Shown in pieces: positions 18,281-30,884 of a stretch of 64,000 nt of DNA. Made by a program: the position numbers and the translations under genes. The DNA lies in the NCBI GenBank assembly GCA_028821605.1, contig JAPPFM010000035.1:1-64000 (forward strand), given 5' to 3'. Below the pieces are notes generated by a model. It was given only the letters and a program-made list of their open reading frames with translations, made no database searches and had not been told where the DNA came from. The first letter of the stretch is position 1, and each line of letters begins with the position of its first letter. Source of the DNA: Candidatus Poribacteria bacterium (GTDB lineage Bacteria; Poribacteria; WGA-4E; WGA-3G).

Positions 18281-20209
18281 TCAATGCCACACAATGTAGG
18301 TAGGCATCTGCAGCACCAATCCGATGAGGCTCCAGACACATCCAAGCGTATAATCCCCCAAAATTAATCCCAGAAAGAACGGCACGGCTTGCCGATAGAG
18401 TTTCACACCGCCAATCTTTAGTAGGGTTGCCTTCGCCAACCAGCTGAGGAAAATCGGAAACCATAAGCCGCCCATCCCTGTCCCGCTCACAAGCACATAA
18501 CCGCCCGGATGCAGGGGCCACCACAGAAAACGTATCTTCATAATCATCAGGAATATCGTGAACAGGAAACTGCTACCGATAACGCCAAGTTCCGGCACGC
18601 TCGTCTCCCGTGGACTCACAAGCCACGTTTGCAAGCGATTGAACGTCTCCCACCCCATATAGACGATCCATCCACGCGCCTTGCTCCCCGCGCCCATATC
18701 GTAAAGGACGTGTAGATATGCCCAAAACGTTATCAGGATACCGAACACAATCGCCAAGATCATCCCGATAAGCAATTGCCGATACCCAATACGACTCCGC
18801 TCTGCCAAGCGAAATGCCTCTAATTCGCTGGGTGTCGGATGTGCACGGAAACAGCGGACAAACGGATAAAGGAACGTTAGTCCTGTCAGATTGGCTGCGC
18901 CGAGTCGGCGTGTTCCGAGTGCAAGCACCATCGTCCGTCCCGGATCGACAAAGATGAGTTGATGGAGCGGCGGTCCAATTTCGGCGCGGATGCGGGTAAT
19001 GCCAATAACTAACGGGAAGTAGAAGAGAAAGAAGAGTCCGATCGCCCAGAAGGTCATTCCCATCTGATGGCAGAAAAAAAAGAGAAATAGCATTCCGACA
19101 GTAAACAACCCTGCAGCAGTGCGATAACGCATCGGTTCACGAGAATCATCAGGCACGGCTTCACCTCGGCGTTGTGCGATTCCGAAAACCTTACGGATAA
19201 TGCGTCCATAGTGTTTCCGTCCCATCCACAACGGGATACATCCGAACGCAATCCACGCACCCGTCTGCTGTTCAAGGTGATAGATATTCCGCGCGCCGAA
19301 TGCGTCCGTTACAATCAGTTGGATACGACTGAAAAGCCAGAAGAACCAGCAGGAGAACGAGAGATCCAACGGCGTGAAGAACATCAGACCGATGCTAAAC
19401 GGATAGAAGGAGATATGAATCGGTCCCATCGCACTCCACGGCTTTGAGCTGAATTGCCCGATTGTTTTACCTTTGATTGGTAGTCCGGGGACATCTGGAA
19501 ACAGGTAGTTCAACCCGTTCAGCAATTCCGCGCTCCCTGCGAGTGCGAATCCGAGCCACATCCACGGGGAGGTAAAAAAACGTTTTGGATTGCTCGTCAA
19601 TGCCAACGGGAGTTGAACAATCGGATAATTCAGGCGTTCATTTTCCGTCCACTGCTTCCGAAGAAAGACCGTTACGGCTAATAACGTCAACCAGAGTGCA
19701 ATCACAAAACTCGACCACGCCAGCACCGGCGGTATCCACGCGTTCAAAATATGGGAAGTATAGAGCGTAGAATCTCCTTCGTAGAAACCGTCCAAAATAC
19801 GCGGGCTTTTGACGGCAATCCATGTTGGGATGTGGTGCCCGAAGAGCGGAATCCATTCGTTTTCTGGAGATGCGAACTGAAAGGCATGGGCGAGGACGGG
19901 GATGAGATAACCCATCATCGTGTGTCCACTGATAGTCGTTAGCATCACAACCATCACGTAGATGGTCTGCAAATCCGCCTGCGACATCGCCAACCGAGGT
20001 AGGAATCGTTGAAGCAGTAGGTTGACCAGCACGAAGACGAGAAGTGTGAAAACTGCGTTAAAGAACAGAGAGGCGATCGTCAGCTGCGTGGAATGCCATA
20101 CCTCTGTTCCCATCAGGCACCAGTAGCTATTAAAGGCGACGAGAGCCAACCCAATCAGCAGAATATGCGGTTTAACAAGGTTCTTTTTCCCGTTTCCGTT
20201 AGTTTCCAT
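18281..20209 (-). CDS. Large multi-pass membrane protein, DUF6785-like, copy 1
   Basis: A 642-residue integral membrane protein with about 13-14 hydrophobic segments, resembling the uncharacterised families labelled DUF6785/DUF6784 that are found in Poribacteria, Planctomycetes and relatives. No catalytic or binding motif is recognisable; a transporter role is a guess. It starts within the end of the phosphopantothenate synthetase gene (11-base overlap), so the two are cotranscribed. It is highly similar to the gene at 22329-24257 over its entire length, and both are driven by the same promoter sequence. The AGGA box before its ATG lies inside the 3' end of the upstream gene. Confidence 0.8.
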   Translation of the reverse strand: METNGNGKKNLVKPHILLIGLALVAFNSYWCLMGTEVWHSTQLTIASLFFNAVFTLLVFVLVNLLLQRFLPRLAMSQADLQTIYVMVVMLTTISGHTMMGYLIPVLAHAFQFASPENEWIPLFGHHIPTWIAVKSPRILDGFYEGDSTLYTSHILNAWIPPVLAWSSFVIALWLTLLAVTVFLRKQWTENERLNYPIVQLPLALTSNPKRFFTSPWMWLGFALAGSAELLNGLNYLFPDVPGLPIKGKTIGQFSSKPWSAMGPIHISFYPFSIGLMFFTPLDLSFSCWFFWLFSRIQLIVTDAFGARNIYHLEQQTGAWIAFGCIPLWMGRKHYGRIIRKVFGIAQRRGEAVPDDSREPMRYRTAAGLFTVGMLFLFFFCHQMGMTFWAIGLFFLFYFPLVIGITRIRAEIGPPLHQLIFVDPGRTMVLALGTRRLGAANLTGLTFLYPFVRCFRAHPTPSELEAFRLAERSRIGYRQLLIGMILAIVFGILITFWAYLHVLYDMGAGSKARGWIVYMGWETFNRLQTWLVSPRETSVPELGVIGSSFLFTIFLMIMKIRFLWWPLHPGGYVLVSGTGMGGLWFPIFLSWLAKATLLKIGGVKLYRQAVPFFLGLILGDYTLGCVWSLIGLVLQMPTYIVWH

Positions 20210-21057: not shown

Positions 21058-21105
21058 TAAACCCCGTTGGAATGTAAACTGATTTTAAATAAAGGAGAGA
21101 AAAAG

Positions 21106-22287
21106 ATGGCGGAAACAACGAAACACCCTGTTGACGACGAGGCAAACATTGAGGAGAGAGCGAGCAGTGTTAATGCTGTGAGTGATATAGAAAATCAACG
21201 CCAAATCAACGATTTACGAAGTGAATATCTCGATGATCGGGCGGCTTCTCTTAATCAATGGCTGGTTGTTATAGGTTTAGTTCTTGCCTTTTTTGCAGTT
21301 GCAATTCCAGTTGTAACTGGTATTGCTGCTTATGTTGCCTACACCCAGTTTCAGCGTATTGAATCCGAGGCAGCGGGATACCTTGAGGAAGCAAAGGGGT
21401 ATGCTAATGAAGCAGCACAATATCTTAAGGACATCCAGGCGCAAAAGAAAATAGCAGAAGAAGTTGTATCGGGATTGACGAGTGGAGACATCAGTAAATT
21501 CGTTCAACCCGGAACATCTGAATTATCCCCAGAAGCTGCGGAGTTACTACAAACGATTCAACGGGATCCTGGGGCATCCGTAATAGATAAGGCTATCGTT
21601 GAGGCGTTCAGATTGCAGCAAGAGGGAAAAACTGATGATGCCATTGAGCAGTGGGGTTCTATTGTGAATATATCGGAGGGGATTGATAACGATATAGCCG
21701 CGGCGGCATTTTTCGCTCGTGGAGGGCTCAAGATTAATTTGGGTAGACATGAAGAGGCGATTTCAGACGCTAAGGAGGCAATCCGCTTAAAGCCAAACTA
21801 TGCTGAGGCTTATACCCTTGCTGGAGTATCCAAGGGGGCTTTGGATAGACATGAGGAGGCGATTTCAGACCTTAATGAGGCAATCCGTCTAAAGCCAAAT
21901 TATGCTGAAGCTTATTTCATTCGTGGATTATCTAAGAGGGCTTTGGATAGACATGAGGAGGTGATTTCAGACCTTAATGAGGCAATCCGCTTAAATCCAA
22001 ATCTTTCAAATCTTGCTGAGGCTTATTTCATTCGTGGATTATCTAAGAGGGCTTTGGATAGACATGAGGAGGCGATTTCAGACCTTAATGAGGCAATCCG
22101 TCTAAAGCCTTATGCTGAGGCTGCTGACGTTTATTTCCTTCGTGGCATGACAAAGGCGAAACTTGGTAAAATAGAGGAGGCAAAGGTAGATTGTCAGATA
22201 GCTTTAAAAATCGCTGAACAACAAGGAAACGAAGATCTCAAAGCGACTATTGAGGCAGTGCTTCAAGGATTTAAAGACCAAGAGTAG
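21106..22287 (+). CDS. Membrane-anchored TPR protein with near-identical repeats
   Basis: A 393-residue protein. One hydrophobic segment (QWLVVIGLVLAFFAVAIPVV, about residues 50-80) is followed by a coiled coil and about five tetratricopeptide repeats toward the C-terminus. Four repeat units share almost the same DNA (GACATGAGGAGGCGATTTCA and following), showing recent tandem amplification. AAGGAG lies nine bases before the chosen ATG. The segment around the membrane helix (LRSEYLDDRAASLNQW) matches LRKEYLDTRDGAINWW of the TPR protein at 29565-30884, so the two are paralogues. The partner and function are unknown. Confidence 0.83.
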   Translation: MAETTKHPVDDEANIEERASSVNAVSDIENQRQINDLRSEYLDDRAASLNQWLVVIGLVLAFFAVAIPVVTGIAAYVAYTQFQRIESEAAGYLEEAKGYANEAAQYLKDIQAQKKIAEEVVSGLTSGDISKFVQPGTSELSPEAAELLQTIQRDPGASVIDKAIVEAFRLQQEGKTDDAIEQWGSIVNISEGIDNDIAAAAFFARGGLKINLGRHEEAISDAKEAIRLKPNYAEAYTLAGVSKGALDRHEEAISDLNEAIRLKPNYAEAYFIRGLSKRALDRHEEVISDLNEAIRLNPNLSNLAEAYFIRGLSKRALDRHEEAISDLNEAIRLKPYAEAADVYFLRGMTKAKLGKIEEAKVDCQIALKIAEQQGNEDLKATIEAVLQGFKDQE

Positions 22288-22328: not shown

Positions 22329-24257
22329 TCAATGCCACACAATATACGTCGGTATCTCCAGCACCAGTCCGATGAGGCTCCAGACACATCCGAGCGTGTA
22401 ATCCCCTAAGATTAGCCCCAAAAAGAACGGGATTGCTTGTCGATAGAGTCTCACACCGCCAATCTTTAGCACCATCGCCTTCGCTAACCAACCCAAGAAG
22501 ATGGTAAACCACAATCTTCCCATGCCGGTGCCGCTGACTAACACGTAACCGGCAGGATGTAGGGGCCACCACAGAAACCGGATCTTCATAATCATCAGGA
22601 ATATCGTGAACAGGAAACTACTGCCGATAACACCCAGTTCCGGCACGCTCGTCTCCCGTGGACTCACAAGCCACGTTTGCAGGCGATTGAACGTCTCCCA
22701 TCCCATATAGACGATCCAGCCGCGTGCCTTGCTTGCCACACCCATATCGTAAAGGACGTGTAGATATGCCCAAAACGTTATCAGGATACCAAACACAATC
22801 GCCAGGACCATCCCGATAAGCAGTTGGCGATACCCGATTTGGCTCCGTTCTGCCAAACGGAACGCCTCCAATTCACTCGGAGTCGGGTGTGCACGGAAAC
22901 AGCGGACGAATGGATAGAGGAACGTTAGTCCCATCAGATTCTCTGTGCCTAAACGGCGTGTTCCGAGGGCAAGCACCATCGTCCGCCCTGGATCGACAAG
23001 GACGAGTTGATGAAGGGGCGGACCAATCTCGGCGCGAATACGGGTGATACCGAGAATCATCGGAAAATAGAAGAGAAAAAAGAGTCCAATCGCCCAGAAC
23101 GTCATCCCCATTTGGAAACAGAAGAAGAAAAGGAACAGCAACCCTACGGTGAACAGTCCAGCAGCAGTGCGATAACGCATCGGTTCCCCAGAATCGTCAG
23201 GGGGTGGTTCGCCACGACGTTGCGCGATCCCGAAGACCTTCCGAATGATGCGTCCATAGTGCCGTCTTCCCATCCACAACGGGATGCATCCGAACGCAAT
23301 CCAAGCACCCGTTTGCTGCTCAAGATTATAGATATTGCGTGCGCCGAACATATCTGTCACTATCATCTGAACACGGGTCAGTAGCCAGAAGAACCAGCAC
23401 GAAAACGAGAGATCCAGCGGCGTGAAGAACATCAACCCGATGCTAAATGGATAGAAGGAGATGCGAATCGGTCCCATCGCGCTCCACGGCTTTGAACTGA
23501 ACTGTCCGAGCGTTTTGTTTCTAATGGGTAAGGAGGGGATCTCTGGAAACAGGAAACTGAGTCCATTGAGCAGCTCGGCACTTCCCGCGAGTGCGAATCC
23601 AAGCCACATCCACGGTGAAGTGAAGAAACGTTTCGGATTGCTCGTCAATGCCAACGGGAGTTGAACAATCGGGTAATTCAGCCGTTCATTTTCTGTCCAC
23701 TGCTTACGGAGGAAAATCGTTACCGCCAATAGTGTCAGCCAGAGTGCAATCACAAAACTGGACCAAGCGAGTACCGGCGGTATCCATGCGTTTAGCGTAG
23801 CAGAGGTGTAGAGCGTGGAATCCCCATTGTAGAACCCGTCTAAGATACGCGGGCTTTTAACGGCGATCCAACTGGGGATGCTGTTTCCAAAGAGCGATAG
23901 CCACTCATTTTCGGGTGATGCGAACTGAAATGTATGTGCGAGGATAGGGATAAGGTAACCCATCATGGTATGTCCGCTGATGGTTGATACCATCACAACC
24001 ATCACATAGATGGTTTGCAAATCCGCTTCGGACATCGCCAGACGCGGCATGAATCGCTGGAACAGTAGATTGACAAGCACGAAAACGAGGAGCGTGAAAA
24101 CCGCATTAAAGAACAGAGAGGCGATTGTCAGCTGCGTAGAGTGCCACACCTCTGTTCCCATCAGGCACCAGTAGCTATTAAAAGCGACAAGAGCCAACCC
24201 AATCAGTAAAATATGCGGTTTGACGAGGTTCCGATTCCCGTTTCCGTTGGTTTCCAT
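22329..24257 (-). CDS. Large multi-pass membrane protein, DUF6785-like, copy 2
   Basis: A 642-residue membrane protein nearly identical in layout to the gene at 18281-20209, with long stretches of the same sequence (for example WCLMGTEVWHSTQLTIASLF and RIRAEIGPPLHQL). The ATG at 24257 is chosen to match copy 1; an ATG two codons earlier is possible. Unlike copy 1 it follows its promoter directly, without the phosphopantothenate synthetase gene. It converges on the TPR gene with a 41-base gap. The function is unknown; two kept copies suggest dosage or slight divergence in substrate. Confidence 0.8.
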   Translation of the reverse strand: METNGNGNRNLVKPHILLIGLALVAFNSYWCLMGTEVWHSTQLTIASLFFNAVFTLLVFVLVNLLFQRFMPRLAMSEADLQTIYVMVVMVSTISGHTMMGYLIPILAHTFQFASPENEWLSLFGNSIPSWIAVKSPRILDGFYNGDSTLYTSATLNAWIPPVLAWSSFVIALWLTLLAVTIFLRKQWTENERLNYPIVQLPLALTSNPKRFFTSPWMWLGFALAGSAELLNGLSFLFPEIPSLPIRNKTLGQFSSKPWSAMGPIRISFYPFSIGLMFFTPLDLSFSCWFFWLLTRVQMIVTDMFGARNIYNLEQQTGAWIAFGCIPLWMGRRHYGRIIRKVFGIAQRRGEPPPDDSGEPMRYRTAAGLFTVGLLFLFFFCFQMGMTFWAIGLFFLFYFPMILGITRIRAEIGPPLHQLVLVDPGRTMVLALGTRRLGTENLMGLTFLYPFVRCFRAHPTPSELEAFRLAERSQIGYRQLLIGMVLAIVFGILITFWAYLHVLYDMGVASKARGWIVYMGWETFNRLQTWLVSPRETSVPELGVIGSSFLFTIFLMIMKIRFLWWPLHPAGYVLVSGTGMGRLWFTIFLGWLAKAMVLKIGGVRLYRQAIPFFLGLILGDYTLGCVWSLIGLVLEIPTYIVWH

Positions 24258-24289
24258 TCCCATTCCTGCTGAAGCACAAATTTCCGTCT

Positions 24290-24476: not shown

Positions 24477-24505
24477 TTGAAATCTTTTGTAAATCAGTGT
24501 ATAAT
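24477..24505 (+). promoter_or_regulatory. Sigma70-type promoter for the HigB/restriction-like cassette
   Basis: TTGAAA (24477-24482), a 17-base spacer and TATAAT (24500-24505) lie about 55 bases upstream of the HigB start. It is the only strong promoter I see before the run of plus-strand genes up to 29.5 kb. Confidence 0.7.
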
Positions 24506-24559: not shown

Positions 24560-24901
24560 ATGGAAATTATTGACCAACAAAAACTCGCTGAATTTGCCCA
24601 AAAACATTCAACTTCCAGATCAGGACTTCTCCGTTGGCTTGGATTGATGCAACAAAGGGATTTCAGTTCAATCAATGAATTGCGAGAAACGTTTCCGCAC
24701 GCGGACTTGGCGAAAAAAGAAATACCTGCACAACCAAGGCAGCAGGTTCCATACGATAACCGAGAAATGATATTTACAGTTTTCAACATTGGCGGTAACA
24801 AAGCGCGACTTATTGCAATTATACGATATGAATCTCAGCAAGTTTTCATTCATAAAGTGCTAACACACGCTGAGTACGATGCTTGGAACAGAAGGGGATA
24901 A
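24560..24901 (+). CDS. HigB-type mRNA interferase toxin
   Basis: A 113-residue protein of the HigB toxin family (RelE-like fold), which cleaves mRNA on the ribosome. Recognisable segments are ARKH/AQKHSTSRSGLLRWL at the N-terminus, DNREMIFTVFNIGGNKARLI and IRYESQQVFIHKVLTHAEYD at the C-terminus. The ATG at 24560 has no clear ribosome binding site; a TTG two codons earlier is an alternative. The stop is 6 bases before the next gene, which begins with a HigA-like antitoxin segment, so toxin precedes antitoxin as in typical higBA operons. Confidence 0.85.
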   Translation: MEIIDQQKLAEFAQKHSTSRSGLLRWLGLMQQRDFSSINELRETFPHADLAKKEIPAQPRQQVPYDNREMIFTVFNIGGNKARLIAIIRYESQQVFIHKVLTHAEYDAWNRRG

Positions 24902-24907
24902 CAAACA

Positions 24908-25990
24908 ATGTCAACTATAACGCGAACGCCACAAAATATATTGTCAACGTTTACGCCGTTTGGGCCACCAATCTTAAGCGCGCAAGGTTTCCCAAAGCGA
25001 GTGTTACCTCCATCGGCACAACCTTTCGCTAAAGCATTCATTGATATTGCTCCTTATCCGGAAAGCGCAGCACAATGGTTGATAAGTTTACTAAATCTGC
25101 TCATCGCTATCGCGAATCGGAACGAAGACCTTAATCGCGTTATGATAACAGAAACCGAATACCAAAAACTTTCAGTAATCTTGGACGATTTAATCTATGG
25201 TGTCGGTGATGATGAAAATCACCCTTTGTCGGCAGCAATGACATTGGTTGGTGTACTTATGAAAACGTACGAAGATCAGCACTTCCCAAAGTTGGTGGAT
25301 CTCTATCCGGAACTAGCCAAAGAGGTATCTGCTAAAATAACTGGCGAAAACAAAAAAGTCTCTGCCCCCGTGTTGGCGCAGAGCGAGACAGATTTCTTCT
25401 TTGCTTTTCTCTCTATTGCCTGCCTTCTTTGGAAAGGAGGCAAGATGAAAAAGGCTATTTCTGCTTATAACGCGGCAATCCGTATAGACCCGGATTATGC
25501 CAGCGTTTATGCTGGGCGTGGCGAAGCAAAATCCAGTCTGAATGACCTTATGGGGGCAAAGGCAGATCTCTATCGAGCATTGGAATTGGCAGAAAAGCAG
25601 AAAGAAAAAGATTTTAGCATTGCTATTGAGGAGCGACTGCAAGAACTTGATGTAGTAGAGTCAGTTATTGAATATTTCTCTGAACCGAAGTTTGCTAAGT
25701 TTTCTACTCTCAGAGAGTGTGAAATTCAGATGGGAAAAATTCATAGCAGAGCCGACATTGTGCTTTGTGATACAGAAGGAAATTTTGTTGCTATCGCGGA
25801 GTGCAAGTTACCGGCATCCGTGAATTATGGGCCCGATCAACTGCAGAGTTATCTCTGTGCAACTGACACGCCTTTTGGTTTTCTTGCTTCTGAGACAAAT
25901 AGAGACTCGTGGATATTCTATGAGAATTTACGGCACAACCGGTTTCGGCAAATTGATCGTTCTGATTTTGAGAAGCGGGTTCTTGAGTAG
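24908..25990 (+). CDS. HigA-like antitoxin segment fused to TPR and PD-(D/E)XK nuclease-like domain
   Basis: A 360-residue fusion. Residues about 74-130 (ITETEYQKLSVILDDLI, then LVGVLMKTYEDQHFP) resemble the N-terminal part of COG5499-type HigA antitoxins, but the helix-turn-helix that normally follows is missing. Residues about 180-245 form one to two TPR units (AISAYNAAIRIDPDYASVYA). Residues about 255-345 look like the type I restriction HsdR N-terminal fold, with D283 in RADIVLCD, E298 and K300 in AIAECK and Q311 further on, fitting PD-(D/E)XK. It is encoded 6 bases after HigB and upstream of a restriction-like methyltransferase. Its dual role (toxin control plus nuclease) is inference. 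Confidence 0.72.
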   Translation: MSTITRTPQNILSTFTPFGPPILSAQGFPKRVLPPSAQPFAKAFIDIAPYPESAAQWLISLLNLLIAIANRNEDLNRVMITETEYQKLSVILDDLIYGVGDDENHPLSAAMTLVGVLMKTYEDQHFPKLVDLYPELAKEVSAKITGENKKVSAPVLAQSETDFFFAFLSIACLLWKGGKMKKAISAYNAAIRIDPDYASVYAGRGEAKSSLNDLMGAKADLYRALELAEKQKEKDFSIAIEERLQELDVVESVIEYFSEPKFAKFSTLRECEIQMGKIHSRADIVLCDTEGNFVAIAECKLPASVNYGPDQLQSYLCATDTPFGFLASETNRDSWIFYENLRHNRFRQIDRSDFEKRVLE

Positions 25991-26031: not shown

Positions 26032-28068
26032 GTGAACACAACCCCTGAAACACAAGTTGTCAGTGTCCCCGACGGTTCCATCCGTGATTATGTTGATGGA
26101 AAAGCCCGTAAGGATACGCCGGAAGAATATGTCCGCCAGACGATTGAAAAAAGACTGATCAACGAGCACAAATATAAACGCGAACAGATCAAAATTGAGT
26201 TCGGTTTGAAACTGGGTTCTCGTAAACCGCGCGCTGATATTGTTGTATTTCCAAAAGACAGCCCGGAAATGACGCAGGATCAGGTGTGGTTGATTGTTGA
26301 ATGCAAAAAAGAGAGTGTAGAGCCGAGAAATAGGAAAGACGGCGTTGACCAACTGAAATCTTACATGAGTGCCTGCCCGAATTGTGAATGGGGCATGTGG
26401 ACAAACGGCAAGTATAAAGAGGTGTTAAGAAAAGTAAAAGTAGAAGGAAAATATGAATTTCAGGAATACAATGATATTCCCGCTGCTGATGGTTCTTTAG
26501 AGGATATTGACAGACCGAACCGCAAGACATTGAAAAAGGCTTATGAAGATAACCTTTTGATGGTTTTCAGAACTTGTCATAATCACATTTATGTAACTGA
26601 TGGTCTGCAAAAACAACCCGCGTTTTTTGAATTATTAAAACTTATCTTTTGTAAAACACTTGATGAGCAGAATGTTGGTCGATCTCTGGAGTTTTACACG
26701 ACCTCAGGAGAACGTTCCTCTCCGGATGGACAGTTAACGGTTAAAAATCGAATTTCTGGGATTTTTGAGAAGGTAAAAAGGAAACATCCACAGATTTTTG
26801 AAGCCAACGATGAAATTAAACTGAAACCTCGTTCGTTGGCGTGGGTGGTATCAGAACTTCAACCTTACTACCTAATTGATACTCATGTTGATGTTAAGGG
26901 GAAGGCGTATGAGGAATTAGTAGGATCAAATTTGAGAGGTGATAGAGGCGAATTTTTTACACCGCGAAACATTATGGACATGGCGGTTAAAATGATTAAC
27001 CCAAAGCGAGATGAAAAGGTTTGTGATACTTCATGCGGCACAGGCGGTTTCTTAGTTATGGCAATGAACCATGTCATTGAAAAACTAAAAAGTGAAGTTG
27101 AGGTGGATTTTGGCAAGCCAGAAGGTCAGTGGGAACAGCATGAGAGAAGCGTGGTAAGAGAGAAAATAGATGAGATTGCATCGTCAAATTTCTATGGTTT
27201 TGACATCAACCCTGATCTGGTCAAAGCCACGAAAATGAACATGGTAATGAATAATGATGGCAGCGGTAATATCTTTCAAAACGATTCACTCTTACCTCCA
27301 CATGAATGGTCATTAGATCTCAAGAAGCAGTTAGCAGACGCGTTAAATATTGACGCAGATGGGATCAAAAACGCTAATACTATTGAATTCTTTGATGTTA
27401 TCGTTACGAATCCACCATTTGGTAGTAAAATCCCTATTAAGGATGGGCACATTCTTGAACAATTTCAGATCGGTTATATTTGGCGCAACGAACAATACAA
27501 CATTGGTGGACAAACAGGATGGAGCATTTCTTCTGATCTTCAAACATCGGCACCTCCAGAGCAGCTATTTATTGAACGTTGTTTACAATTTCTCAAACCC
27601 GGGGGAAGATTGGCGATTGTTTTGCCGGATTCAATTTTAGGGAATCCAGGACTTGGCTACATTCGTCACTGGTTGATTGAAAGGACGCGAATTATTGCCA
27701 GTATAGATTTGCACGAGGATGCCTTTCAGCCCGGGAACGGAACCCAAACCTCAGTCTTGATTCTTCAGAAAAAATCTGAAGAGGAAATAATAGCAGAGAA
27801 ACTCTCAGGTATTAAGCCATACAACATTTTTATGGCAGTGGTGGACAAGGTTGGCCACGATAAACGGGGTAATACCCTATTTAAACGGGACGAACAGGGT
27901 AATGAAATTTGGGTGTCAGAAGATCCCGATGTATCTGAAATAGGGGAAGTCGCGGAGAGTGAATTCATCTATGAGACCGAAAGCAGAGTCCGTATCATTG
28001 ACGATCAAAGCCGTGAAGTTCCGGCTGTATTTGATCAGTGGAAACAAGAGGAGGGTATTGCATGGTAA
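26032..28068 (+). CDS. Type I-like N6-adenine methyltransferase with N-terminal HsdR-type nuclease domain
   Basis: A 678-residue fusion. Residues 25-135 carry a PD-(D/E)XK core like the HsdR N-terminus (D69 in RADIVVF, E90 and K92 in LIVECKKE, Q107 in DQLKSY). Residues about 165-600 are an HsdM-type methyltransferase with EFFTPR, AdoMet motif DTSCGTGGF (332-340) and catalytic NPPF (460-463). The start is GTG after AAGGAGAAG. HsdS follows with an overlapping start, so the two proteins should form a modification complex; the nuclease domain could cut in cis. No HsdR helicase is present, unlike classical type I systems. Confidence 0.85.
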   Translation: MNTTPETQVVSVPDGSIRDYVDGKARKDTPEEYVRQTIEKRLINEHKYKREQIKIEFGLKLGSRKPRADIVVFPKDSPEMTQDQVWLIVECKKESVEPRNRKDGVDQLKSYMSACPNCEWGMWTNGKYKEVLRKVKVEGKYEFQEYNDIPAADGSLEDIDRPNRKTLKKAYEDNLLMVFRTCHNHIYVTDGLQKQPAFFELLKLIFCKTLDEQNVGRSLEFYTTSGERSSPDGQLTVKNRISGIFEKVKRKHPQIFEANDEIKLKPRSLAWVVSELQPYYLIDTHVDVKGKAYEELVGSNLRGDRGEFFTPRNIMDMAVKMINPKRDEKVCDTSCGTGGFLVMAMNHVIEKLKSEVEVDFGKPEGQWEQHERSVVREKIDEIASSNFYGFDINPDLVKATKMNMVMNNDGSGNIFQNDSLLPPHEWSLDLKKQLADALNIDADGIKNANTIEFFDVIVTNPPFGSKIPIKDGHILEQFQIGYIWRNEQYNIGGQTGWSISSDLQTSAPPEQLFIERCLQFLKPGGRLAIVLPDSILGNPGLGYIRHWLIERTRIIASIDLHEDAFQPGNGTQTSVLILQKKSEEEIIAEKLSGIKPYNIFMAVVDKVGHDKRGNTLFKRDEQGNEIWVSEDPDVSEIGEVAESEFIYETESRVRIIDDQSREVPAVFDQWKQEEGIAW

Positions 28069-29528
28069 CACAACTCTACCTTTCCTTACCAACAACGGAG
28101 GATCAAGAAACTCAAAACCCTGATTTTAAATGGACAACTATTAATCTTCAAGAAGTTTTTGAAACAAACTATCGTTTAGAGGCAGGTGTCTACGGGACTG
28201 AAGGCAGACAAGCAAGGCAAAACATAGCGCATTCCAAATGGGACATTGTTTATTTGTGTGGTGAAAATGGACTTGCTACCGCTTATCATAGACCGCGGTT
28301 TAAAAGAATATATGTAGAAAAATCAAGTTTTCCAATTTATCAACCGGCACAGATTAATGAACTGTATCCAAAACCATCTGCCTATATTTCTGGTTTGACC
28401 CAAACAGATATAGATGCCCTAAGAGTCAAAAAAGGGCAGGTTTTGTTAACCTGTTCTGGCACGATAGGAAATTGCACGTACGTCCGAGATACTTTAGACA
28501 ACCTCATCTTTAGCCATGATGTAATTAGGATTGAACCTAAAGAATATAGTGGTTTTATTTACGCTTTTCTGAAATCAAAAATTGGCTTTTCTATCATAAA
28601 TACCAATAACTACGGGGCAGTTGTTAAACATATTGAACCGGAACACCTAAACCATGTTCCTATTCCTAATCCACCAGTCGCTCTCAAACAGGAAATTCAT
28701 GACCTAATTGAGGAATCCTTCAAATTACGAGATGAATCCAATGAATTGATGGATGCGGCGCAATCATTACTGAAAACTGAATTAAAACTGCCAACAATTG
28801 AGGTTTTGATAGAGCAAGCTGAAAAGTTTAATAGAACCGTAGAGGTTCTTAATTATTCTGTGTCTTCAAGTGAGGTAATTGATCGGTTAGATGGAACTTA
28901 TTATGATTCAGTTGTAAAAGCAATTGAAACGCATATAGCGAAAAGGGCAAAAGAAATTGTTAAAGTTGTTGACGGTCGAATAAGCAAATCGGTTACCTTG
29001 CCAGGCCGATTTAAAAGAGTCTATGTTGAGGAAGGTAATGGGATTGTATTTTTCACTGGTAAGCATATTTCAGATTTAGATCCTTCTGACAAGAAATATC
29101 TATCGCTTTCACAACACACGGAGAAGATTGAAAATGAGCTTATTATCAGAGAGGGTATGATCTTAGTCACATCCAGTGGAACTCTCGCTAATACCGTATT
29201 AGTCCCAAAACATTGGGATGGGTGGGCTATGACACATGACATTATTCGCGTGGTACCAGTAAACAAAGAAATTTCAGGTTATCTGTATGCTTGGTTGTCA
29301 AGCGATTATGCTCGTGAATTAATTCACAGATTTGCTTATGGTGCTGTGGTGAGACATTTGGAAAAAGAACATATTTCCCAAGTCAGTGTTCCATTATTGA
29401 GTGATGAAAACGCACAGCAGGAAATAAATGACACGGTTTTGGAAGCCAATCGGAAACGCACTGAAGCCTATAACTTGGAACAGCAAGCATTGAGGGTGCT
29501 TGATGAGAAGGTTATCTATGCGCGGTGA
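28062..29528 (+). CDS. Type I restriction-modification specificity subunit (HsdS)
   Basis: A 488-residue specificity protein made of two halves with the same pattern: a target recognition segment (GQVLLTCSGTIGN in the first, GMILVTSSGTLAN in the second), then IIRV/VIRIEP, a YGAVVKHI/YGAVVRHL motif and a helical spacer. The two halves should read the two parts of a bipartite DNA target. The ATG at 28062 has GAGGAGG upstream and overlaps the methyltransferase stop (ATGGTAA), so expression is tightly coupled. Confidence 0.87.
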   Translation: MVTQLYLSLPTTEDQETQNPDFKWTTINLQEVFETNYRLEAGVYGTEGRQARQNIAHSKWDIVYLCGENGLATAYHRPRFKRIYVEKSSFPIYQPAQINELYPKPSAYISGLTQTDIDALRVKKGQVLLTCSGTIGNCTYVRDTLDNLIFSHDVIRIEPKEYSGFIYAFLKSKIGFSIINTNNYGAVVKHIEPEHLNHVPIPNPPVALKQEIHDLIEESFKLRDESNELMDAAQSLLKTELKLPTIEVLIEQAEKFNRTVEVLNYSVSSSEVIDRLDGTYYDSVVKAIETHIAKRAKEIVKVVDGRISKSVTLPGRFKRVYVEEGNGIVFFTGKHISDLDPSDKKYLSLSQHTEKIENELIIREGMILVTSSGTLANTVLVPKHWDGWAMTHDIIRVVPVNKEISGYLYAWLSSDYARELIHRFAYGAVVRHLEKEHISQVSVPLLSDENAQQEINDTVLEANRKRTEAYNLEQQALRVLDEKVIYAR

Positions 29529-29564: not shown

Positions 29565-30884
29565 ATGATAAAATTTTCTGGAGTATGGTACTGGCTTGTG
29601 GTAATGGTGGTTCTGATCCTTGCAGCAGGTATAACAACTCTGTTTCCACAAACGGGTGATGTTCCCGTATCTGAGGAAACAAAACCTCCTGATACCACAA
29701 ATAAGGTTGAGCCTGTTACCAAGGTTGAGACCCAACAGGAAGTTCCTGCGTCCAGTTCTCCTGAAGTAAACATTGATCCTTCCGACAAGGTTGAACTTCA
29801 GCAGCTCTTCAATGACTTGAGGAAGGAATATCTGGACACCCGAGATGGGGCGATCAATTGGTGGTTGCAATTTATTACCATAGTCCTTGCCTTTTTCGGT
29901 ATTGTTGTTGTAGTTTTAGGTTACTTTGGACTCCAAGAGTTTAAGAAACTTAAAGCTGAAGCGGAAAGAGACACCAAGGAAATAAAGGAGAATCTCACTG
30001 AAGTATTGAAAAGCGCAGCGGAACTTGAGAGAGTCAGGGCAGAACCGGAAACTGGTGATGTAGAAGCAAAATCTGATGAAGCTATGCAAAGGACGAGGGA
30101 AACGTTAGGCGCTGGTGTATTTGCTACTCTCTTTGCTGACGAAGAATTTGAGAAAGGGCTGCGAGATTTTGAACAAATTCCCACTCTGTCCTTTACAGAC
30201 AAGGCGATGATTGAAGCGTATAAATTGCAAAAAGATGGTAAAATTGCAGAGGCAACCCAGAAGTGGTGTTCTATTGCTAATATCGTTGGTGAAGCAGATA
30301 AAAACCTTGCTGCCCGCTCGTGGTTTTCGGCTGGGTACCTCTATGGGGCGGAAGATAAAAAAGAAGAGTCTATTTCTGCTTACGATAAAGCGATAAATCT
30401 AAAACCGGATTATGCCGAAGCCTACGCCGCCCGAGGAACTGTGAAATCAGTACTGAATCGGCGTGAATCAGCAATTGATGACTATAATGAGGCAATCCGT
30501 CTGAAACCAGATTTTGCCGAAGTCTACAACAATCGAGGTTGTGAGATGACAAGACTGGGTCAGTATGAATTAGCAATGGATGACTGTAACGAGGCAATCC
30601 GTCTGAAACCAGATTTTGCCTACGCCTATGACAGTCGGGGTACTGTGAAGCAGTCTTTAGGTCAACATGAATCAGCAGTTGATGACTATAACGAAGCAAT
30701 CCGCCTAAAACCGGATTATGCCGAAGCCTACTACAACCGAGGTAATGTGCACGTGGACCTAGAGAATATTGAAGGTGCGAAGGCGAACTTCCAGATTGCC
30801 TTAGAACTAGCGAAAGAACAAGGTGAAAAAGAACTCACGGATGCCATTGAGAAAAGTCTTCAAGCACTTAATGAGATAGAATAA
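29565..30884 (+). CDS. Membrane TPR protein, paralogue of the 21.1 kb gene
   Basis: A 439-residue protein with two hydrophobic segments, one at the N-terminus (WYWLVVMVVLILAAGITTLF) and one near residues 100-125 (FITIVLAFFGIVVVVLGYFG). An acidic Pro/Thr-rich loop separates them, and a coiled coil and five TPR units follow. Three TPR units are almost identical in DNA (GATGACTATAACGAGGCAAT and following). It follows HsdS by about 35 bases on the same strand with GGAAGG before its ATG, so it may be part of the cassette. No enzymatic motif is seen. Confidence 0.82.
   Translation: MIKFSGVWYWLVVMVVLILAAGITTLFPQTGDVPVSEETKPPDTTNKVEPVTKVETQQEVPASSSPEVNIDPSDKVELQQLFNDLRKEYLDTRDGAINWWLQFITIVLAFFGIVVVVLGYFGLQEFKKLKAEAERDTKEIKENLTEVLKSAAELERVRAEPETGDVEAKSDEAMQRTRETLGAGVFATLFADEEFEKGLRDFEQIPTLSFTDKAMIEAYKLQKDGKIAEATQKWCSIANIVGEADKNLAARSWFSAGYLYGAEDKKEESISAYDKAINLKPDYAEAYAARGTVKSVLNRRESAIDDYNEAIRLKPDFAEVYNNRGCEMTRLGQYELAMDDCNEAIRLKPDFAYAYDSRGTVKQSLGQHESAVDDYNEAIRLKPDYAEAYYNRGNVHVDLENIEGAKANFQIALELAKEQGEKELTDAIEKSLQALNEIE

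What the first reader, a model, noticed from the sequence alone, without database searches (positions are those of the whole stretch)
24560..25990. HigA-like antitoxin segment fused to TPR and a PD-(D/E)XK domain, paired with HigB
The gene 6 bases after HigB begins with a segment like the N-terminal part of COG5499 HigA antitoxins but lacks the helix-turn-helix. It continues into TPR units and an HsdR-N-like nuclease core (D283, E298, K300). Linking toxin neutralisation to a nuclease in one chain would couple restriction activity to HigB release. This is family knowledge plus inference; the fusion itself is visible.
Basis: partly seen in the sequence, partly recalled or inferred. Interest (0 to 1): 0.7.

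Follow-up and report, generated by a model that had tools for sequence, protein, structure and literature searches.

The report
HTH-less HigA antitoxin with nuclease-like tail
Sponge-dwelling bacteria (Poribacteria) pair an ordinary RNA-cutting toxin with an antitoxin that has lost its usual DNA-binding half and carries protein-repeat and nuclease-like modules instead; the arrangement is real and conserved, but nothing yet shows that the nuclease and the toxin act together.

Summary
HigB (24560-24901) is followed 6 bases later by a 360-aa gene (24908-25990) made of a HigA N-terminal domain (strongest at residues 81-127), TPR units (166-231) and a PD-(D/E)XK domain (about 245-360; D283, E298, K300). 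There is no helix-turn-helix. The same fusion occurs in 12 other Poribacteria genomes under purifying selection. Only 7 of the 13 keep an intact HigB directly upstream.

The fusion belongs to a larger, apparently undescribed family. Poribacterial HigB is almost always followed by a HigA N-terminal domain without a helix-turn-helix: alone (about 75-150 aa), with 1-14 TPRs, or with TPR plus nuclease. On the HigB tree the nuclease form is one clade.

Best reading: a HigBA pair whose HTH-less antitoxin neutralises HigB through its N-terminal helices, with the tail as an accessory (sensor, scaffold or DNA-binding) module. Neutralisation, nuclease activity and any signal are untested. New variant of a known kind.

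The parts
24477..24505 (+). sigma-70-like promoter TTGAAA-17-TATAAT in front of HigB
   Evidence: 11 of 12 consensus positions; same site in orthologues L118, L122 and L129, absent in L120, L121, L123 and L125
24560..24901 (+). HigB toxin gene (113 aa)
   Evidence: Pfam PF09907 3.6e-22; phmmer 5IFG_A 2.9e-9; model to 5IFG_A Z 17.3 rmsd 1.2/100 aa
24902..24907 (+). 6-base gap; HigB stop and antitoxin ATG lie in the same frame with one in-frame stop between
   Evidence: sequence; same arrangement in most poribacterial pairs
24908..25990 (+). antitoxin-like fusion gene (360 aa)
   Evidence: ORF; 12 orthologues, 51-73% identical
25034..25312 (+). HigA N-terminal domain (residues 43-135; homology to canonical HigA strongest at 81-127)
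   Evidence: three predicted helices; dN/dS 0.12-0.20
25403..25600 (+). TPR units (residues 166-231)
   Evidence: PF00515 5.7e-8; helical in model; dN/dS 0.06-0.23
25640..25987 (+). PD-(D/E)XK domain (residues 245-360) with D283, E298, K300 and a QxxxY motif after them
   Evidence: HSDR_N_2 1.7e-5; folds like BpuSI, DrdV and 3ijm; alignment of 27 relatives; dN/dS 0.20-0.26
26032..28068 (+). neighbour, not part of the core pair: type IIB-like restriction-modification subunit (HSDR_N_2 + N6 methylase)
   Evidence: nearest solved structure RM.BsaXI 1.9e-31; present behind only 2 of 13 fusions
28038..29528 (+). neighbour: specificity subunit (HsdS-like)
   Evidence: Methylase_S 1.2e-14

Best explanation
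This is a type II toxin-antitoxin pair of the E. coli K-12 HigBA kind with a rebuilt antitoxin. HigB is an mRNA-cutting toxin (shown: family and fold; inferred: activity). The antitoxin binds and masks HigB with its N-terminal helical domain, the same domain that canonical HigA carries in front of its HTH (shown: homology and gene order; inferred: binding and neutralisation). The HTH is gone, so the antitoxin should not repress its own promoter through an HTH (inferred). In this lineage the freed C-terminus took on TPR repeats and, in one HigB clade, a type IIG-like PD-(D/E)XK domain (shown: one clade on the HigB tree). Natural partners that lack the tail suggest that it is not needed for neutralisation; it most likely acts as an accessory module that tethers, stabilises or senses (a TPR partner, or DNA through the nuclease fold) and so tunes when HigB is free (inferred, weakly supported).
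For: HigA-N homology with controls. HigB family and fold. In a set of 63 distinct HigB ORFs from loci fetched for this purpose, nearly all are followed directly by a HigA-N gene, usually with a single in-frame stop between; one (L253) still has the HTH, and its HigB groups with canonical outgroups. Partners consisting of HigA-N alone, 76-148 aa with no HTH match, imply that this domain suffices. Antitoxin architecture follows HigB clades (8 changes against 28.1 for shuffled labels; nuclease clade support 97/94, with one nuclease-less member nested inside). All three domains are under purifying selection. A HigBA-type pair whose antitoxin reads a phage signal is known: HigBAC, where a phage tail protein disrupts the HigA-chaperone contact (PMC11980606; chaperone-addiction extension, PMC6377645).
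Against: No binding, toxicity or rescue data exist for these proteins. AlphaFold gave no reliable HigB:HigA-N interface (pTM 0.44). Four genomes keep the full fusion with no HigB found upstream, and two more have only a truncated HigB, so the fusion may have a job besides neutralisation. A sensor role for the tail rests on analogy only.
Confidence: 0.7

Rival explanations
1. Coupled defence: the nuclease domain attacks or senses foreign DNA, alone or with the neighbouring RM, and this event releases HigB to shut the cell down.
For: Catalytic triad intact in the window and mostly conserved; purifying selection on the domain; RM genes directly downstream here and in G064, and a HigA-N gene upstream of the same RM in further genomes.
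Against: RM behind only 2 of 13 fusions. RM relatives in G055, G060 and G079 sit behind HigA-N with HigB, TPR and nuclease lost. The RM has its own nuclease domain. HigB is kept beside a relative without the nuclease (L079/L129) and beside a fusion with K300 replaced (L065). The Q of the QxxxY motif is lost in nearly all fusion orthologues though kept in the window.
Confidence: 0.15
2. Drift by domain accretion: in these TPR-rich genomes, a HigA-N gene picked up TPRs and a neighbouring standalone nuclease-domain gene by recombination; the tail has no role in the pair.
For: TPR number varies from 0 to 14 among partners. Further copies of the same nuclease domain lie next to the fusion in several genomes (L118, L122, L126, L128). 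HigB is kept where the nuclease was lost.
Against: The tail is kept in frame in 13 genomes with dN/dS 0.06-0.26 and mostly intact catalytic residues.
Confidence: 0.15

Closest known systems
E. coli K-12 type HigBA (5IFG, 6KML)
   Same: HigB family and fold; gene order toxin then antitoxin; HigA N-terminal helical segment
   Different: no C-terminal HTH; TPR and PD-(D/E)XK in its place
HigBAC / toxin-antitoxin-chaperone modules
   Same: HigBA pair whose antitoxin carries an added C-terminal part that could control stability or sensing
   Different: no SecB-like chaperone gene next to it; TPR-nuclease domain instead of a chaperone-addiction peptide
N-terminal nuclease domains of type IIG enzymes (BpuSI, DrdV) and HsdR (HSDR_N_2)
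   Same: PD-(D/E)XK core with D283, E298, K300
   Different: no methylase, helicase or target-recognition domain in the same protein; attached to an antitoxin domain
Modular antitoxins such as Panacea proteins (PMC10440598)
   Same: neutralising part and regulatory part are separate, swappable domains
   Different: different domains; here the HTH is absent and TPR/nuclease are attached

Membership tests
HigB toxins (PF09907, K-12 type) | profile match above the curated cut-off | tested here: met
   78.8 bits against 27
HigB toxins (PF09907, K-12 type) | RelE-like fold of E. coli HigB | tested here: met
   Z 17.3, rmsd 1.2 over 100 aa to 5IFG_A
HigB toxins (PF09907, K-12 type) | cleaves translated mRNA | not testable with these tools
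   needs an experiment
HigA antitoxins (K-12 type, COG5499) | N-terminal helical domain | tested here: met
HigA antitoxins (K-12 type, COG5499) | C-terminal HTH DNA-binding domain | tested here: not met
   no Pfam HTH match at E up to 1; own HTH model finds it in only one poribacterial partner, L253
HigA antitoxins (K-12 type, COG5499) | gene directly downstream of higB | tested here: met
   6 bases in the window; recurrent in other genomes
HigA antitoxins (K-12 type, COG5499) | neutralises HigB | not testable with these tools
   needs an experiment; interface not predicted reliably
PD-(D/E)XK nucleases (HSDR_N_2 / type IIG N-terminal domain) | core fold | tested here: met
PD-(D/E)XK nucleases (HSDR_N_2 / type IIG N-terminal domain) | D...ExK catalytic residues | tested here: met
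   D283, E298, K300; QxxxY also present in the window
PD-(D/E)XK nucleases (HSDR_N_2 / type IIG N-terminal domain) | cuts DNA | not testable with these tools
   needs an assay
Type I HsdR subunit | helicase motor domains after the nuclease | tested here: not met
   no helicase match in the 360-aa protein, which ends with the nuclease domain
HigBAC toxin-antitoxin-chaperone | SecB-like chaperone gene in the operon | tested here: not met
   next genes are methylase and specificity subunit
PD-Lambda-2 defence system | all components present | tested here: not met
   only component A (HigB) matches, 4.6e-16; the fusion matches no PADLOC model
MADS defence system | MAD2 equivalog score | tested here: not met
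   neighbouring methylase scores 624.6 bits against a cut-off of 720

The most novel reading that the evidence does not exclude
The PD-(D/E)XK tail is a DNA (perhaps phage DNA) sensor or nuclease wired to HigB through one polypeptide: engagement of foreign DNA frees HigB, making an HTH-less antitoxin that is itself the infection sensor.
Probability: 0.17. Interest if true: 0.8.

Novelty: new variant of a known kind. Interest (0 to 1): 0.52.

Why it matters
It shows a HigBA lineage in which the antitoxin lost its DNA-binding half and replaced it with other modules, while the toxin-facing half stayed. It offers natural variants (HigA-N alone, with TPR, with TPR plus nuclease, with catalytic residues lost) that let one ask directly what an antitoxin's second domain is for and whether HTH autoregulation is needed. 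No paper describing it was found in the held library.

Tried and rejected
A profile search of the HigA-N segment from 7 sequences against PDB sequences found no HigA; larger alignments settled the homology. A small-alignment profile comparison gave only probability 75.6. The first joint model left HigB unresolved (pLDDT under 50); a deeper alignment resolved HigB but not the interface. Fold search of that second model listed mainly HigB-like and RelE-like toxins, so HigA-N itself was not matched to a solved HigA by structure. PDB sequence search with the nuclease domain gave nothing. No viral contig encodes the fusion by the patterns used; the genome-contig scan with two peptide patterns returned only Poribacteria, but both scans are pattern-limited. 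Considered and rejected: HsdR subunit (no motor); PD-Lambda-2; MADS; an obligate link to the RM genes.

Full report
What is there. HigB occupies 24560-24901 on the + strand and a 360-aa gene occupies 24908-25990, six bases later. A sigma-70-like promoter (TTGAAA-17-TATAAT, 11 of 12 matches) lies at 24477-24505 and recurs in three of seven orthologous loci compared. A type IIB-like restriction-modification subunit (26032-28068) and a specificity subunit (28038-29528) follow on the same strand; the nearest solved structure of the former is RM.BsaXI (1.9e-31).

HigB. Pfam HigB_toxin 3.6e-22. The predicted structure overlays E. coli HigB 5IFG_A at Z 17.3, rmsd 1.2 A over 100 residues. It carries an insertion of about 18 residues (roughly 52-69) relative to canonical HigB.

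The antitoxin segment. Residues 81-127 match canonical HigA: BLASTP E 2e-11 and 45% identity to a phage HigA, and profile-profile probability 98.1, E 1.1e-13, score 78.2 against a maximum of 25.4 in 200 column shuffles and 29.3 for the reversed profile. In K-12 HigA the HTH lies at the C-terminus (PMC6987408; PMC7984235), so the segment is the non-HTH half. The fusion has no HTH match; 20 of 26 canonical partners of HigB from phages and plasmids do.

The tail. TPR units span residues 166-231. Residues about 245-360 form a PD-(D/E)XK domain: HSDR_N_2 at threshold, a predicted alpha-beta-beta-beta-alpha-beta core with most blocks at pLDDT 71-93 and two short weak loops, and structural matches to BpuSI (Z 9.2), DrdV (Z 9.0) and 3ijm (Z 8.7, and top Foldseek hit). 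D283 sits in one strand and E298 and K300 at the end of the next (fusion residue = model residue minus 116).

Conservation. Twelve other genomes of the phylum carry the full fusion; the record titles name the loci as Candidatus Poribacteria. D283 is kept in 13 of 13, E298 in 12 (A in L060), K300 in 12 (M in L065). The Q of QxxxY is kept in the window but replaced in nearly all orthologues. dN/dS against four orthologues is 0.12-0.20 for HigA-N, 0.06-0.23 for TPR and 0.20-0.26 for the nuclease.

The wider family. 55 of 85 genomes of the phylum have this HigB and 67 have HigA-N. Among 63 distinct HigB ORFs in the loci fetched, nearly all are followed at once by HigA-N, typically with one in-frame stop between the two. 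These loci were taken mostly because they matched HigB or HigA-N, so the figure describes HigB neighbours and is not a random sample. Partners are HigA-N alone (76-148 aa), HigA-N with 1-14 TPRs, or HigA-N with TPR and nuclease; only L253, from another family of the order, has an HTH. On a HigB tree, architecture follows clades (8 changes against 28.1 for shuffled labels) and the nuclease form is one clade (support 97/94) with one nested member that lacks the nuclease.

Is restriction coupled to HigB? HsdM follows the fusion in 2 of 13 genomes. Relatives of HsdM in G055, G060 and G079 sit directly behind HigA-N genes 64-78% identical to the window's HigA-N, with TPR and nuclease gone and no HigB in the 1.5 kb (L157) to 4 kb (L132, L141) upstream sequence examined. 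An intact HigB is kept next to a partner with no nuclease (L079/L129) and next to a fusion with K300M (L065). The RM subunit has its own HSDR_N_2 domain at 4e-28. So fusion and RM can each exist without the other, and an intact catalytic lysine is not needed to live with HigB. Conversely, four genomes keep the fusion with no HigB found upstream, and in two more HigB is truncated, so the fusion may do something more than neutralise.

Mechanism. Shown: families, folds, gene order, conservation. Inferred: neutralisation by HigA-N; loss of HTH autoregulation; accessory role of the tail. The two AlphaFold jobs read through the HigB stop codon to put both proteins in one chain as a modelling device; neither gives a reliable interface.

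Known or new. The parts are known; the combination, and the whole HTH-less HigA family with TPR tails, was not found in the papers searched. Subscription papers are mostly absent from that library, so this is no proof of novelty. I file it as a new variant of type II HigBA.

Noticed in passing
window 18281-20209 and 22329-24263 (- strand): Two very similar large membrane-protein ORFs (642 and 644 aa) in tandem, with a TPR gene (21067-22287, + strand) between them.
   Followed up: no
window 21067-22287 and 29565-30884: Two genes with a hydrophobic, membrane-like N-terminal stretch and C-terminal TPR repeats flank the region; relatives of the second lie near fusion loci in some other genomes.
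   Followed up: partly
window 24899-24907 and most poribacterial HigB-HigA-N pairs: Toxin and antitoxin lie in the same reading frame with a single stop codon between them; readthrough would make a HigB-HigA fusion.
   Followed up: partly
L067 9397-10683 (- strand): A 429-aa open frame joins the first half of HigB in frame to HigA-N-TPR-nuclease; probably a decayed HigB.
   Followed up: partly
L149, L153, L157, L135: HigA-N genes without HigB directly upstream of the type IIB-like RM genes, in some cases overlapping them.
   Followed up: partly
L118 5177-7729; L019 9415-9981 and 10067-11671: The same nuclease domain occurs in other proteins: two copies in an 851-aa ORF, one in a 188-aa ORF, and one in a 534-aa ORF that appears to carry OB-fold-like repeats (by eye).
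   Followed up: no
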